DNA of 64,000 nt from Halosimplex salinum (GTDB lineage: Archaea > Halobacteriota > Halobacteria > Halobacteriales > Haloarculaceae), in contig NZ_QWGG01000001.1 of NCBI RefSeq assembly GCF_003730195.1, positions 992,001-1,056,000 of the forward strand, written 5' to 3'. The stretch's first letter is position 1, and each line of letters opens with the position of its first letter. Below are positions 8,228 through 13,659 of the stretch, piece by piece. Below the pieces are notes generated by a model. It saw only the letters and a program-made list of their open reading frames with translations. It did no database searches and was not told the origin of the DNA. The position numbers and the translations under genes were made by a program.

Positions 8228-8986
8228 ATGACTACAGTCGCCGTGCTCGTCCGTCCGCCGGAGTCCGGGACCGTCCTGCCGACACTCGTCGACGCCGGTG
8301 CGGTGACCGCCGACGAGGCGCGCGACCTCTACGCGGCGATGGTTCGGGACACGTGCGCCGCCGTCGAATCCAGCGGCGGCGACCTACTCGTCAACTATCG
8401 ACCCGTCCACGCCGAGGACGAGACCGAAGCCACGGAGGACGAGGAAGCGCTCGACGCCGTCCGCTCTCTCCTCGACGGCGCGCTCGCCAACCCCGATAGC
8501 CACCGCTACGAGGTGCAGGTCGGATCGTCACTCTCTGCTCGCGTCGGCAACACCGTCACGCATCTCCTCGAACGCGAGGCAGTCAAGAGCGCGGCGGTCG
8601 TGCGCCCGACCGCGGCACTGCTGGAGCGTCGACACGTCGACAGCGCGGCGATGAAGCTCCGGCAGTCGGAGGTCGTCCTCGGTCCGGCGACCGACGGACT
8701 CGTCTCCTACGCGGCGTTCACGGAGCCGATCGACTTCGAGGACGCGTTCACGTCGCCCGAGGTGGAGACGCTGACCGACCGCGCGGTCGACGCGGGGCTG
8801 AGCGTCGATTTCCTCGAGATGCACCCGGTCGCCGAGACCGCGGGCGGACTCGCGACGCTCGTCTCGCAGATCCGAGCGCGACAGCGCGCGGACCTCCGCG
8901 TACCGCCGTACACCACCGCCGTCGTCGAGGACCTCGGGCTGCGAGCGACGGCGGTCGACGGCCATTTCGACGTCGGGCGGGACTGA
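8228..8986 (+). CDS. DUF2064-like protein (GT-A/nucleotide-diphospho-sugar transferase fold)
   Basis: Encodes 252 aa. The layout recalls DUF2064 (the TIGR04282 glycosyltransferase-like group): an N-terminal strand TTVAVLVRPP, a helix DLYAAMVRDTCAAVE, a strand LLVNYRP, then SEVVLGPATDGLVSYAAF, which matches the GPA-x-DGG-x-Y region of that family. The usual second glycine after the Asp is Leu here, so catalytic competence is uncertain. Cytoplasmic, with no membrane segment. Its TGA stop lies inside the first ACTGAGCGA unit of the hairpin array that follows, so the repeat forms its 3' end. Confidence 0.6.
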   Translation: MTTVAVLVRPPESGTVLPTLVDAGAVTADEARDLYAAMVRDTCAAVESSGGDLLVNYRPVHAEDETEATEDEEALDAVRSLLDGALANPDSHRYEVQVGSSLSARVGNTVTHLLEREAVKSAAVVRPTAALLERRHVDSAAMKLRQSEVVLGPATDGLVSYAAFTEPIDFEDAFTSPEVETLTDRAVDAGLSVDFLEMHPVAETAGGLATLVSQIRARQRADLRVPPYTTAVVEDLGLRATAVDGHFDVGRD

Positions 8987-9188
8987 GCGAAGCCGCAGGC
9001 TTCGCGAGGGTCGAGAGACGAACGGAGTGAGTCTCTCGGGACTGAGCGATGGCGTAGCCATCGCGATGGTCGCGAGGCGCGAAGCGCCTCGCGGAACTGA
9101 GCGACGACGGAGTCGTCGCGAGGGTTGCGGGACGCGAAGCGTCCCGCTGGACTGAGCGAAGCCGCAGTCGTATCTCGTAACTGAGCGA
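8982..9188 (+). repeat. tandem array of covarying hairpins spaced by ACTGAGCGA
   Basis: ACTGAGCGA recurs at 8982, 9041, 9096, 9151 and 9180 (spacings 59, 55, 55 and 29). The first three units each hold two palindromes. First type: GCGAAGCC/GGCTTCGC around gca (8987-9005), GCGATGGC/GCCATCGC around gta (9046-9064), GCGACGAC/GTCGTCGC around gga (9101-9119). Second type: GAGAGAC/GTCTCTC around an 11-nt loop (9013-9037), GCGAGGCGC/GCGCCTCGC around gaa (9072-9092), GCGGGACGC/GCGTCCCGC around gaa (9127-9147). Stem sequences differ between units but pairing is kept. The array begins at the stop codon of the upstream gene and ends about 40 nt before tRNA-Ser. Confidence 0.9.
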
Positions 9189-9228
9189 CCGACAGGTCTT
9201 AGGGCGGACGGGCGGTACGCTCGAACGC

Positions 9229-9312
9229 GGTGGGATAGCGAAGTGGCCTAACGCGCCTGCCTTGAGAGCAGGTGTCCTCACGGACCCAGGGGTTCGAATC
9301 CCCTTCCCACCG
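9229..9312 (+). tRNA. tRNA-Ser(UGA)
   Basis: An 84-nt class II tRNA read by eye. The acceptor stem is GGTGGGA (9229-9235) paired with TCCCACC (9305-9311), discriminator G9312. The anticodon stem-loop is CCTGC-CTTGAGA-GCAGG with anticodon TGA. There is a long variable arm, and the T arm is AGGGG-TTCGAAT-CCCCT (9288-9304). No CCA is encoded and no intron is seen. G at position 73 and the long variable arm both agree with serine identity. It reads UCA and related Ser codons. Confidence 0.95.
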
Positions 9313-9475
9313 TCTTCTGTCGCGACCGACCCGGCGAGCACCGCGTCGCGTGTGCTCGCGAACGGTCCGCGGGTCGTGGACAGACCGACAGGTGCCGACA
9401 CCCGAGAAACCTGCAACGAACTCGCTCGCAGGCCGAAACAGTACCGAAATGCCGCGCTCGCGTAGGTTCGTTTTC

Positions 9476-10642
9476 ATGACGACGGACACCCGGTTTCGAC
9501 AGGTCCACGACTACGCGCGTCACTCGGGCTTTCTCACGGGATTCCCGAACTTCCATCAGGCCGACTACGGACAGGGCGTGGTGTACGGCACCAAGCTCGT
9601 CCCGGAGAACTCGGGCGAATACAGGGACGTTCCACGGACACAGCTCGGTTCGAACCTCGCTCGACAGAACGTCGGCGACATGGTCAGAGCGGCGAACAGC
9701 TACGCCCAGGCCAACGGATACGCGGGTGCGCTCCCGACGTTTCACGAGGCGGACCACGGAAACGGAGTCGTCTACGGGCTCGTCCTGTACGACTCGCCGT
9801 CCGCGGAGTTCAGAGACGTCCCGGCGACGGAGCTCGGCAACCCCGATCTGAAGGACGTGGGCGCCACGTTCCGCTCGGCCAACGACTACGCGGGGAGACA
9901 GGGCTATTCGGCCGGATTTCCGACGTTCCATCAGGCGAACTACGGCGACGGCCGTGGCGTGGTCCGCGGCGTCGTCCTGTTGCGCCAGGGAGCGACGGAC
10001 GCACTCGACGTCCCCCAGACCGTCCTCGAACGCTACGCTCCGGAAACCGCGCCACAGCGGTCGGGGGGGTCGGGCGGCTTCTACGTGCCCAGATGGTTCA
10101 AGCAGATCCGTCACTACGCACGACGGAACGGGTTCGCCGGCGGGTTTCCGACCTTTCGGGAACGGCCACGGTATCAGGCCTTCGTCGAGTACGAGTTCCA
10201 GTTACTGCCCGGCTCCGTCGCCCGTCACATCATCCTCATGGAAGTCTCGCTGGGCTCGCTGCCAGATAACGCCGTCTCCAACGCGGGCGGCCAGCTTTCA
10301 CGTGCCGTGTCCGACTACGCCGCGCAGAACGGTCTCACGGGTGCGTTCCCCAGTTTCACCGAGGGTGACTTCTATTCCAGACGGGATTACGGTGTGACCC
10401 TCATCAGTCAGCGCGCGTTCCAGAGAGACGTGCCTGCCTATATCCTGGGGAACGTCGACGTAGACAACGTCCGGGAGATGTACTACGAAGCGAACCAGTA
10501 CGCAACCCGACACGGGTTCGCCGCGGCCGTCCCCACCTTCCATCAGGCGAACTACGGCGGCACCGTGGTCCGCGGCCTCGTCCTGTTCGATCCCGGCGCG
10601 ACGGAAGCCAGGTGGCTCACGATCCCCGAACTGAGGGCGTGA
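9476..10642 (+). CDS. protein made of six ~60-residue repeats with a GFPTFHxANYG core, unknown function
   Basis: Encodes 388 aa made almost wholly of six imperfect repeats. Each has a short helix (x-Y-A-x-x-N/H-G-F), then GFPTFHQANYGxG, then a hydrophobic strand (VVRGVVLL, VVYGLVLY), and often ends RDVPxTxLG. Core copies are GFPNFHQADYG, ALPTFHEADHG, GFPTFHQANYG, GFPTFRERPRY (diverged), AFPSFTEGDFY (diverged) and AVPTFHQANYG. There is no signal peptide or membrane segment. I do not recognise the family. The regular Phe/His/Asp/Tyr spacing suggests a beta-propeller, beta-trefoil-like or lectin-like repeat. It is less acidic than its neighbours and lies just after tRNA-Ser(UGA), which is compatible with acquisition by transfer. 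A start at 9449 is also possible. Confidence 0.75.
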   Translation: MTTDTRFRQVHDYARHSGFLTGFPNFHQADYGQGVVYGTKLVPENSGEYRDVPRTQLGSNLARQNVGDMVRAANSYAQANGYAGALPTFHEADHGNGVVYGLVLYDSPSAEFRDVPATELGNPDLKDVGATFRSANDYAGRQGYSAGFPTFHQANYGDGRGVVRGVVLLRQGATDALDVPQTVLERYAPETAPQRSGGSGGFYVPRWFKQIRHYARRNGFAGGFPTFRERPRYQAFVEYEFQLLPGSVARHIILMEVSLGSLPDNAVSNAGGQLSRAVSDYAAQNGLTGAFPSFTEGDFYSRRDYGVTLISQRAFQRDVPAYILGNVDVDNVREMYYEANQYATRHGFAAAVPTFHQANYGGTVVRGLVLFDPGATEARWLTIPELRA

Positions 10643-10714
10643 CGGACTCCCGACGAGGCGACGCCTCGACGTGTTCGGGACCGCTTCCCCGTTCCCGACC
10701 ACTACGGCACCGCC

Positions 10715-11041
10715 TCATTCGCGTTCCTGCAGTTCCCGGATCGCGTCCTCCTGCTCCTTGCGGGCGATCCCGCCGCTCTCGGCGTGTCGGCCGGTGTACT
10801 GCGAGTCCGGGATTCCAGACCAGACAGAAGACCCGTCGTCGCCGTCGCGGGCCCGCAGGAACCACGCCGCACAGAGAGCCGCGTAGACGGTGACTGCGAG
10901 CCCGACACCGAGAACGAAGCCGCTCTGGAGGACGGCGTCGAACAGCGCGGCGAACCCCGTCACGAACGCGCCGCCGATCAGGACGAACGCGACCAGGGCG
11001 TGAAACCACCTGGGGACCGAGAGGTCGACGCTCCGTGACAT
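10715..11041 (-). CDS. small membrane protein with two transmembrane helices
   Basis: Encodes 108 aa. After a short N terminus (MSRSVDLSVPRWFHA) there are two hydrophobic helices (about 14-37 and 42-65, with a GFAALFDAVLQSG loop), then a hydrophilic cytoplasmic tail with a Lys/Glu-rich end (ARKEQEDAIRELQERE) that looks helical. The ATG at 11041 is preferred over one 42 nt upstream, which would add an unlikely Arg-rich leader. No function can be named; many haloarchaea carry such proteins. It converges with the repeat-protein gene. Confidence 0.75.
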   Translation of the reverse strand: MSRSVDLSVPRWFHALVAFVLIGGAFVTGFAALFDAVLQSGFVLGVGLAVTVYAALCAAWFLRARDGDDGSSVWSGIPDSQYTGRHAESGGIARKEQEDAIRELQERE

Positions 11042-11116
11042 ACCCGGATCTCCACCGCCCAGCAGAAAAGGTCTTCTGGCCAACCAGTTCTCGGCAGGCC
11101 GACCCCGCCGCCGCGG

Positions 11117-11872
11117 TCACACTCGACGGTAGTCACCGAGTCGCGTCCCGTCGAGGAGGTACGCCTCGCCGTCGGCCAGTCCGTCGGGGAGAAACGGAGC
11201 GAGGAACTCCTGCCCGTCGACGTTGACCCACGTGCCGCCCGAGAGGTCGTTGAACCCCGGGAAGACCACGAGCTCGCCGTCGACGTCGAAGTCGGCGTCG
11301 TGGAACTCGTGGAACGGCTCCGAGTTCAGGTCGCCGCGGAGCCACACCCGTTCGACGCGGGCGCCGCCGACCTCGTCTTCGAGTCGGACCACCGGATGCT
11401 CGTGCCCGACGCAGACGACCTCTGCGGTGAGCACGTCCGGGCTCGGCCAGGTGTGGCCGTGGGCGAAGCCGACCTCACCGATGCGGACCCCGTGGCCGGG
11501 CGTTATCTCTACGGACTGGTCGACCCGCTCCAGAATCGCCTCCACGTCGCCGTCGTGATTCCCCTTCGCGAGCGTGACCGGCAGGTCGGCGGGGAGCGCG
11601 TCGAACAGCGCGAGCACCTCCTCCCGTTCGTCGCGCCCCGGGTCGCCGATAGCGTGGCCGAGGTCGCCGAGGACGAGCAGTCGGTCCGGCCGCTCCCGCT
11701 CGACGAGCGCGAGCAACGACTCGCGGCGGTCCGGGCTGTGGTCCGGGAGTTCGACGCCGTCTCTGCGGAGTCCGGCCTCGATGCCGGCGTGGTAGTCGGC
11801 GACGACGAGCACGCGCTCGCCGTCGCAGGTCGCGACCGCGGCGGGGTCGCCCGGGAGCGGTTCGACGCCCAT
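11117..11872 (-). CDS. rpe: calcineurin-like phosphoesterase of the RPA operon
   Basis: Encodes 251 aa. Metallophosphoesterase blocks are present: VVADYHAGIE (D-x-H, with Tyr between), LVLGDLGH (GD-x-x-x), KGNHDGD (GNHD), FAHGHTWPS and VCVGHEHPVV (GH-x-H). Its ATG overlaps the TAA of the upstream gene (TAATG), the third cistron of an RPA operon. In Haloferax volcanii a phosphoesterase gene named rpe occupies the same place after rpa1 and rpap1. The fold belongs to the ICC/MJ0037-type group whose substrate is unknown. A role at single-stranded DNA is suggested by the operon only. Confidence 0.87.
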   Translation of the reverse strand: MGVEPLPGDPAAVATCDGERVLVVADYHAGIEAGLRRDGVELPDHSPDRRESLLALVERERPDRLLVLGDLGHAIGDPGRDEREEVLALFDALPADLPVTLAKGNHDGDVEAILERVDQSVEITPGHGVRIGEVGFAHGHTWPSPDVLTAEVVCVGHEHPVVRLEDEVGGARVERVWLRGDLNSEPFHEFHDADFDVDGELVVFPGFNDLSGGTWVNVDGQEFLAPFLPDGLADGEAYLLDGTRLGDYRRV

Positions 11873-13659
11873 TAGATCGGCTTGTACACGTCGTCGTCGG
11901 GCTCGTAACACCGACCGTCCATCAGCGCGTCCTGGATGGCGTCGCGTACTTCGTCGTCCGGCGCGCCGGTGCTCCCCGTCACCGCGTCGACGATGTCGTC
12001 AGCGTGAGCGCCGTCGCCGTCGTCAAGGTCACGCATCGCGTCCATCACCGCGTCCTCGACGTCCACGTCTTCGGCCGGTTCGGCCTCGGCCTCCGGTTCG
12101 GCCGTTTCGCCGGAGGGTTCCGGTTCGGTCTCCTCGGCCGCTGGCTCGGCGGTCTCGGTGGCGGGTTCCGGTTCGGTCTCCTCGGCCGCTGGCTCGGGTT
12201 CGTCCGCGGCGGTGGCCTCGGAGTCGGTTCCGGCGGCTTCTTCCTCGGCGAGTTCGTCCGGGTCCGGCGTCTCGATGCCGGCCTCACCGGGTTCCCCGAC
12301 TTCGCTCCCGCTCTGGAACTCCGTGCCGTACTCCTCCTCGATCTCCTCGCGCTCGTCCTCGTCGAGTTCGAACTCGCCGGCGTCGAAGTCGTCGAGGTCG
12401 TCGGCGCCGGCCTCGTCGGCGGCCCCGTCCGTCCCCTCGGGACTCGTCTCGACCTGCGGGCCCGTCCCACCGGTCTCGTCCGTGCTGGCCGCGGCACCGC
12501 CCGTGTCGGCGGTGGCGGCGCCGCCCGTGGCGTCGGCCGTCGGCTCCGCTTCGACCGATTCTGTTTCGGCCGCGTCCGCGGCCGTCTCTGCCTCGTCCGC
12601 CGCCGTCTCTGGCTCGTCAGCCGTCGCGTCCGCTTCGACCGGTCCCGAGTCGGCGTCCGTCGCCGCGGATTCGGCGGACTCCGATCCGGTCTCGACTGTC
12701 TCCGTCTCGGCCGGTTGGGCGCTCTGCTCGGCCGACTCGCCCGAGGGGTCGGCCGTCGTCTCTGCGGTCGTGGTTCCCGCATCCGCGGTCGCGGTCTCGT
12801 CCTCGCTGTCGGTCGCGGTCGCCGCCGAGCCGCTGGCCCCGGACTCGTCGGCCGCCGCGGCAGGGGAGTCGTCGCCGAACGCAACGCCCAGATCGGCGCT
12901 CTCGCCCCCGACGTTCGGAGCCACGTTCAGCGAGGCGAGCGCGGCCAGATCGGCCTCGCCCGGGGCGTCCGGGGAGGCCGAGTGCGGGTCGACCTCGTCG
13001 CGTTCGTCGGCGACGACTTCGAGAGCCTGAACGGACGTGTTTCGTATCGCGTCGAGGTAGACGGGCGTCGTCCCGTAGTGGTCGATGCCCAGCGGGATCC
13101 CCGCGGCGAGCCCGGTGTCGACGCCAGCGGCTTCGAGCGCGTCGCGCAACTCGTCGCCGCGTTCGTCCATCCGGAGCGCGCTCGCCATCGTCCGCACGCG
13201 GTCGAGCGTCTGTCGGGCCGTCCCGACCGTCCAGCGGTCGCGCGTCTCCGCGTCGACCTCGTTGACGTTCTCCGGGCGGATCGACGTGTAGGTCACGTTC
13301 GAGTCGTCGGGCTGGAAGGTCCGGGCCTTCCCCGTGACCGCGACGAACATCGGCGGCTGGGCGCGCTCGAAGAACGCCTGCGCGTCGGGCTGGTACTGCC
13401 CGGCGTAGATCACGAACGCGCCCGTCGGGTCGACGACCCGCGCACGGAGCACGTCCTCGCTGGCGTTCTCGACCTCGGTGAGGACGCCGACGACGAACAA
13501 CCGGTTCACCCGGCCGCCGGTCGGCGACACCACGTAGTTCGGGGCGCGCTCCTCGTCGCTCTCGGAGTAGGAGAAGTCCGAGTCCTCGAACTCCGCGGCG
13601 AAGAGCCGATAGGCGACCTCGCGGCGGCCCGCGCCGCCCTGGTCCTCGGATCCGCTCAT
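11872..13659 (-). CDS. rpap1: RPA-associated protein (COG3390 OB fold) with long acidic linker and C-terminal winged helix
   Basis: Encodes 595 aa. Residues 1-235 hold the COG3390/RPAP region with an OB fold (NRLFVVGVLTEVE, VLRARVVDPTGAFVIYAGQY, MFVAVTGKARTF). Residues about 250-525 are an extreme Ala/Glu/Asp/Thr/Ser-rich linker with repeated AAEETEPEP units. The last 65 residues (VEDAVMDAMRDL, HADDIVDAV, DDEVRDAIQDALMDG, CYEPDDDVYKP) look like a winged helix. OB fold, linker and winged helix in that order echo eukaryotic RPA32. The ATG overlaps the RPA stop (ATGA) and the stop overlaps the phosphoesterase start, so the three proteins should be made together. Confidence 0.9.
   Translation of the reverse strand: MSGSEDQGGAGRREVAYRLFAAEFEDSDFSYSESDEERAPNYVVSPTGGRVNRLFVVGVLTEVENASEDVLRARVVDPTGAFVIYAGQYQPDAQAFFERAQPPMFVAVTGKARTFQPDDSNVTYTSIRPENVNEVDAETRDRWTVGTARQTLDRVRTMASALRMDERGDELRDALEAAGVDTGLAAGIPLGIDHYGTTPVYLDAIRNTSVQALEVVADERDEVDPHSASPDAPGEADLAALASLNVAPNVGGESADLGVAFGDDSPAAAADESGASGSAATATDSEDETATADAGTTTAETTADPSGESAEQSAQPAETETVETGSESAESAATDADSGPVEADATADEPETAADEAETAADAAETESVEAEPTADATGGAATADTGGAAASTDETGGTGPQVETSPEGTDGAADEAGADDLDDFDAGEFELDEDEREEIEEEYGTEFQSGSEVGEPGEAGIETPDPDELAEEEAAGTDSEATAADEPEPAAEETEPEPATETAEPAAEETEPEPSGETAEPEAEAEPAEDVDVEDAVMDAMRDLDDGDGAHADDIVDAVTGSTGAPDDEVRDAIQDALMDGRCYEPDDDVYKPI

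What the first reader, a model, noticed from the sequence alone, without database searches (positions are those of the whole stretch)
9476..10642. Six-repeat protein with a GFPTFHxANYG core next to tRNA-Ser
The 388-aa product is almost entirely six repeats of about 60 residues with a conserved Phe-Pro-Thr-Phe-His...Asn-Tyr-Gly core, two of them decayed at the His/Tyr positions (repeats 4 and 5). I cannot assign the fold. It lacks a signal peptide, is less acidic than its neighbours, and sits directly after a tRNA gene, all hinting at acquisition. A new beta-repeat binding protein is possible.
Basis: partly seen in the sequence, partly recalled or inferred. Interest (0 to 1): 0.6.

Follow-up and report, generated by a model that had tools for sequence, protein, structure and literature searches.

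The report
Rare bacterial repeat protein in haloarchaeon
This salt-loving archaeon carries a six-repeat protein of a family that none of the protein-family libraries we scanned describes, found very sparsely in unrelated bacteria and apparently acquired beside a tRNA gene; its repeats look like ligand-binding modules that bacteria attach to proteases and other effector domains, but the ligand is unknown.

Summary
The 388-aa product has six ~60-aa repeats; a model built only from bacterial repeats finds all six. It has no accepted match in Pfam, NCBIfam, PHROGs, PADLOC or PDB sequences.

It is not an orphan. Relatives sit in 13 bacterial loci across about seven phyla and one other haloarchaeon (2 of 391 class genomes, own included). 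In bacteria, repeat arrays precede HExxHxxGxxH proteases (4 loci), a cytolysin-type domain, PASTA, or fascin-like/PPPDE domains.

Acquisition is well supported. All 7 other genomes of the genus lack the gene. One has 24 bp where the window has 1,359 bp. GC3 and acidity lie outside all 33 window genes compared.

AlphaFold gives a confident beta-alpha-beta-beta unit (pLDDT 94 for two repeats), not an all-beta one. The most suggestive solved fold is Microcystis viridis lectin (Z 4.1-4.3, tied with RNA polymerase tip domains in one search), without sequence support.

Best reading: a horizontally acquired, multivalent, probably cytoplasmic binding protein; glycan as the ligand is a guess.

The parts
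9476..10642 (+). gene of the six-repeat protein, 388 aa
9479..9655 (+). repeat 1 (aa 2-60), FPNFHQADYG core
   Evidence: i-E 6.3e-27
9668..9847 (+). repeat 2 (aa 65-124), LPTFHEADHG core
   Evidence: i-E 6.7e-25
9854..10039 (+). repeat 3 (aa 127-188), FPTFHQANYG core; end of the part that matches bacterial protease-linked triplets in order
   Evidence: (i-E 2.9e-22)
10040..10081 (+). linker aa 189-202, mostly low confidence in the model
   Evidence: aa 190-201 pLDDT under 50
10082..10228 (+). repeat 4 (aa 203-251), core decayed
   Evidence: i-E 2.2e-6
10289..10459 (+). repeat 5 (aa 272-328), core decayed
   Evidence: i-E 1.4e-8
10466..10636 (+). repeat 6 (aa 331-387), VPTFHQANYG core
   Evidence: i-E 3.1e-15
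9228..9314 (+). tRNA-Ser (TGA), upstream edge of the variable spot
   Evidence: the same tRNA in 7 of 7 same-genus loci
9360..10718 (.). extra DNA relative to genome G007, where 24 bp stand in its place
10715..11083 (-). gene of a small 122-aa protein, downstream edge of the spot, kept in most relatives

Best explanation
P0001 belongs to an unannotated, very sparsely distributed family of ~60-aa repeats of bacterial origin. An ancestor of the three-repeat kind that Chloroflexota and Actinomycetota fuse to metzincin-like proteases reached haloarchaea by horizontal transfer. There it carries a second set of three repeats, two of them decayed in this genome, instead of an enzyme. In this genome it lies at an exchangeable spot next to tRNA-Ser(TGA). 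It probably works as a soluble multivalent binding protein: each intact repeat forms a small beta-alpha-beta-beta unit that shows the conserved Asn/Thr-Phe-His...Asp/Asn-Tyr-Gly patch to a ligand, and the string of units gives avidity. The ligand is most likely a sugar chain, as with Microcystis viridis lectin. Shown: repeats, family, patchy distribution, absence of the gene at this place in sisters, fusions. Predicted: fold. Inferred: direction of transfer, binding. Guessed: that the ligand is a glycan.
For: Six repeats. Relatives in 12 loci of genome contigs (12 of 25 pattern matches confirmed) and on one Paenibacillus plasmid. Haloarchaea: 2 of 391 of the class, 1 of 170 in G354's family, 1 of 59 relatives. 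The two haloarchaeal proteins are sisters (100/100), weakly grouped with L010, L011, L012 (76/82). Repeats 1-3 match repeats 1-3 of G354, L010, L011 and L005 better in that order than in any other. Fusions: HExxHxxGxxH in L005, L006, L010, L011, PF01289 in L007, PASTA in L012, fascin/DUF7910 and PPPDE in L013. Empty site: G007 has 24 bp between the flanks. Composition outlier. Model of two repeats: pLDDT 94.0, pTM 0.85. MVL ranks first for the whole model (Z 4.3, rmsd 3.4, 50 aa) and fifth, tied, for the two-repeat model (Z 4.1, rmsd 3.0, 54 aa, MVL residues 1-54).
Against: No binding has been measured. The MVL similarity is weak: Z under 5, tied with RpoE/Rpb7 tip domains (up to 4.9) and below the level the tool calls telling. 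Foldseek has no match at E 0.001. Profile comparison with 7 MVL repeats is at the level of shuffled columns (81 of 100 shuffles reach it). Pfam's MVL model does not hit P0001 (5). Most N-termini show no clear signal peptide (clear hydrophobic stretch in 2 of 11, L007 and L009; L004 borderline; the start of L006 is uncertain), so most members may stay in the cell, where glycan targets are few. Two of six repeats are decayed, which could mean loss of function. Deep branches of the tree are poorly supported.
Confidence: 0.4

Rival explanations
1. The repeats bind protein, not sugar: in bacteria they are N-terminal substrate-recognition or inhibitory pro-domains of proteases, and the haloarchaeal copies are the same module without the protease.
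For: The repeats that match in order are those placed before proteases (L005, L010, L011), and L010 and L011 have no clear signal peptide.
Against: The same repeats stand before a cytolysin-type domain, PASTA and fascin-like domains, or alone, so they are not specific to proteases. There is no conserved cysteine in the repeat columns for a cysteine switch.
Confidence: 0.25
2. A passenger: an acquired gene without present function that is decaying, seen before it is lost.
For: One of eight genomes of the genus has it; repeats 4 and 5 are decayed; composition is still foreign.
Against: The frame is open over 388 codons. Aa 1-190 keep 57% identity (109 of 190) to G354, against 36% (69 of 190) for the second half, so the first half looks conserved. 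GC3 of 0.817 is already high.
Confidence: 0.25
3. A true remote homologue of the MVL lectin family (PF12151), diverged beyond profile recognition.
For: Same order of elements, tandem units of ~54-60 aa, top or tied structural match over the whole MVL unit (73, 99).
Against: No profile support, no PF12151 hit. The QW-T motif of the MVL repeats seen is absent. Beta-alpha-beta-beta is a common small arrangement: one search also lists polymerase subunits and small cysteine-rich peptides.
Confidence: 0.1

Closest known systems
Microcystis viridis lectin, MVL (PF12151; PDB 1zhq)
   Same: Predicted beta-alpha-beta-beta unit of about 54-60 aa in tandem; first or tied structural match. PMC11203576 (passages) describes MVL as 113 aa with two tandem 54-residue carbohydrate-binding domains.
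   Different: No profile similarity above shuffles, no Pfam MVL hit, a different core motif; sugar binding unknown.
RNA polymerase RpoE/Rpb7 N-terminal tip domain
   Same: Comparable structural score (Z 4.3-4.9 for four archaeal chains, 55-59 aa).
   Different: No sequence similarity (5-6% identity in those rows), single rather than tandem, unrelated context.
Fungal chimerolectins (MOA type: lectin module plus protease)
   Same: Analogy only: a repeat module in front of a protease, apparently without signal peptide. Seen as search listing and abstract starts; part of the MOA architecture is recalled.
   Different: Different folds (recalled) and kingdom; no homology claimed; P0001 itself has no enzyme part.

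Membership tests
Repeat family defined here (alignment A4) | ~60-aa units with a P-[NT]-F-H-x-A-[DN]-Y-G-like core and V-Y-G | tested here: met
   a bacteria-only profile finds six units in P0001; R1, R2, R3 and R6 keep the core or nearly so
MVL mannan-binding lectin (PF12151) | match to the family's sequence profile | tested here: not met
   no PF12151 row for P0001 (HMMER filters on); hhalign score within shuffles
MVL mannan-binding lectin (PF12151) | beta-alpha-beta-beta unit in tandem | tested here: inconclusive
   Z 4.3 and 4.1, tied with unrelated folds
MVL mannan-binding lectin (PF12151) | binds oligomannose | not testable with these tools
   needs protein
DUF5130 (PF17174) | profile score over the curated cut-off | tested here: not met
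   15.3 bits against 27, over aa 267-299 only
tRNA-targeted integrative element | duplicated tRNA 3' end at the far edge | tested here: not met
   single copy in the window at up to 3 mismatches; partial copies exist in relatives G001, G003, G005
tRNA-targeted integrative element | integrase gene inside the insertion | tested here: not met
   the 1,359-bp extra stretch is filled by this one gene

The most novel reading that the evidence does not exclude
A new class of multivalent glycan-binding repeat, unrelated by sequence to known lectins. Bacteria of many phyla use it as the targeting part of proteases and of a pore-former-like protein, as fungi do with chimerolectins, and haloarchaea acquired it as a free-standing cytoplasmic lectin.
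Probability: 0.2. Interest if true: 0.65.

Novelty: new variant of a known kind. Interest (0 to 1): 0.45.

Why it matters
It defines a repeat domain without a match in the family libraries scanned here, yet spread thinly over many bacterial phyla and two haloarchaea and fused to several effector-type domains. If the repeat binds a ligand, one binding assay would give a meaning to all of those fusions. It is also a clear case of single-gene transfer into haloarchaea, with an empty site in a sister species.

Tried and rejected
All-beta repeat: rejected by the models. Known family: Pfam, NCBIfam, PHROGs, PADLOC and PDB sequence scans gave nothing over cut-off for P0001; relatives or their profile gave nothing over cut-off within the repeats. 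Viral origin: no match in phages and none confirmed in IMG/VR in three scans (the last two gave 38 and 36 pattern matches, none confirmed). Conserved gene neighbourhood: 14 flanking genes of bacterial and G354 loci scanned, no shared family. Two Actinomycetota matches at E 6e-4 and 8.4e-4 were dropped as chance: they lie in long frames that look like aldehyde dehydrogenases (recognised by eye). En-bloc duplication of repeats 1-3 into 4-6: the best order within P0001, but not within G354, so undecided. The core motif as text in papers: 0 papers. Folds not listed are not excluded.

Rows dropped: alignment A1 was out of register by one repeat and was not used for conclusions. For hhalign 8 of 34 rows were dropped, because no repeat precedes them or they are cut short. 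The tree left out L009, L013 and L014 (short or broken); L003 and L015 were not in its source alignment.

Full report
Observation. The frame at 9476-10642 gives 388 aa with six ~60-aa units. To avoid circularity I built a profile from 35 repeats of bacterial relatives only. It finds six units in P0001 (total E 1.4e-104; weakest unit 2.2e-6), while the best of 1000 shuffles gives E 0.22. The tRNA-Ser(TGA) lies at 9228-9314 (3).

Known families. P0001 has no accepted match in Pfam (only DUF5130, 15.3 bits against a cut-off of 27), NCBIfam, PHROGs, PADLOC or PDB sequences. Eight relatives scanned against Pfam and NCBIfam and three proteins show families over cut-off only outside the repeats.

Distribution. 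A tblastn of plasmids finds one Paenibacillus peoriae plasmid (2 repeats, 139 aa). One scan of 84,980 species genomes confirmed 12 of 25 pattern matches: cyanobacteria (L004, L009, L015), Actinomycetota (L005, L006, L011), Bacteroidota (L007), Planctomycetota (L008), Chloroflexota (L010), Bacillota (L012, L013) and a Desulfocapsa MAG (L014); the phyla of L009, L013, L014 and L015 are my reading of the record titles. The scan used one strict peptide pattern, so it undercounts. Samples searched with the profile: 2 of 391 genomes of the window's class, own included; 1 of 170 in G354's family (102); 2 of 244 cyanobacteria, both already known; 3 of 346 Actinomycetota, two of them chance; 1 of 251 Chloroflexota; 2 of 26 of the genus of L006 (103). 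All but the class sample were centred on a genome already known to be positive, so their counts include it. The family is rare everywhere.

Other haloarchaeon. G354, of another family in the same order, has a 574-aa relative with six repeats followed by about 190 aa of other sequence. First halves are 57% identical (109 of 190), second halves 36% (69 of 190). Its surroundings differ from the window's, and there is no tRNA in the 20 kb fetched. Its GC3 is 0.74 and its pI 9.2, even less haloarchaeal.

Acquisition. None of the 7 other genomes of the genus has the gene. Comparison of 8228-11911 with them shows the tRNA-Ser in 7 of 7. In G007 the positions that match 9359 and 10719 are 24 bp apart, so 9360-10718 is extra in the window or lost there; absence in all seven favours gain. 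G005 also lacks the gene between the tRNA and the gene of the 122-aa protein; G001 lacks both. In G003, G004 and G006 the same place holds a 487- to 491-aa frame; that of G003 was scanned and matches DAO/Mqo oxidoreductases, the other two look alike by eye. In G002 the spot holds a 407-aa PQQ-type propeller protein. The spot is thus exchangeable. Partial copies of the tRNA 3' end lie downstream in G001, G003 and G005 (62, 65, 66, 68) but not in the window, so integration through the tRNA is possible but not shown.

Architecture and order. In L010 and L011 the triplet starts near the N-terminus and is followed by HEMGHEFGLDH or HEIGHALGLGH; L005 and L006 carry HEMMHCAGYSH. NCBIfam's M6 domain matches L010 and L011 at 27.7 and 32.7 bits, below its cut-off of 110.8 (28), so 'metzincin-like' rests on the motif. 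L007 carries PF01289 (E 1e-13) and L012 PASTA (1.7e-6); the frame after a broken L013 array carries DUF7910/fascin and PPPDE. P0001 repeats 1-3 score best in the order 1-2-3 against G354, L010, L011 and L005, but not against L004, L007, L008 and L012 (116). This ties the haloarchaeal triplet to the protease-linked kind; the tree agrees only weakly (76/82).

Structure. AlphaFold on P0001 with 12 relatives: mean pLDDT 83.6, pTM 0.59. On aa 46-172 with 10 relatives: 94.0 and 0.85. Each unit, read from the third strand of the preceding repeat, is strand-helix-strand-strand. Strongly conserved residues (of 41 rows: P 38, V 37, G 36, A 35, H 33) lie mostly on the first strand after the helix, the turn and the next strand. 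Foldseek finds nothing at E 0.001 in PDB or viral models. VIA-align puts MVL first for the full model (Z 4.3) and fifth for the two-repeat model (Z 4.1, tied with RpoE/Rpb7 tip domains at up to 4.9). hhalign of 26 repeats with 7 MVL repeats scores 6.9, reached by 81 of 100 shuffles. I therefore do not file the family under MVL; I only say that it may work like it.

Mechanism. Shown: repeats, family, fusions, rarity, absence in sisters. Predicted: fold. Inferred: a binding role, from fusion to several effector-type domains, tandem design and a conserved polar-aromatic patch. Guessed: sugar as ligand, which rests on the weak structural resemblance alone. Of 11 N-termini inspected, L007 and L009 have a clear hydrophobic stretch, L004 is borderline, and the start of L006 is uncertain, so members may act on either side of the membrane.

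Verdict. A real, rare repeat family without a name in the libraries scanned; horizontally acquired here; function open. The core motif strings occur in no paper of the library (48, one search of six strings), which does not prove that the family is undescribed.

Noticed in passing
window 9314-10719; L074 to L080: The place downstream of tRNA-Ser(TGA) is an exchangeable spot in the genus: without insert in three genomes, an Mqo/DAO-like frame in three, a PQQ-type propeller gene in one, the repeat gene here.
   Followed up: yes
G005 C1:4557775-4557880 and C1:3632791-3632876: In G005 the upstream gene is followed by only the first part of tRNA-Ser, while the complete tRNA with the downstream genes lies about 0.9 Mb away, which suggests a rearrangement inside the tRNA gene.
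   Followed up: no
window about 8976-9180: A stretch with repeated ACTGAGCGA and small palindromes; part of it matches many places in this and sister genomes (best E about 1e-9), so it looks like a dispersed repeat.
   Followed up: no
L007 6857-9049: Runella limosa protein with these repeats and a PF01289 thiol-activated cytolysin domain (E 1e-13), an unusual pairing.
   Followed up: partly
L081, L082: Cyanobacterial proteins that join one MVL lectin unit to a long domain that looks like an endonuclease/phosphatase (by eye).
   Followed up: no
L013 6980-8568: The Paenibacillus array appears frame-shifted, with a DUF7910/fascin and PPPDE part in the second frame and a SpoIISA toxin gene nearby.
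   Followed up: no
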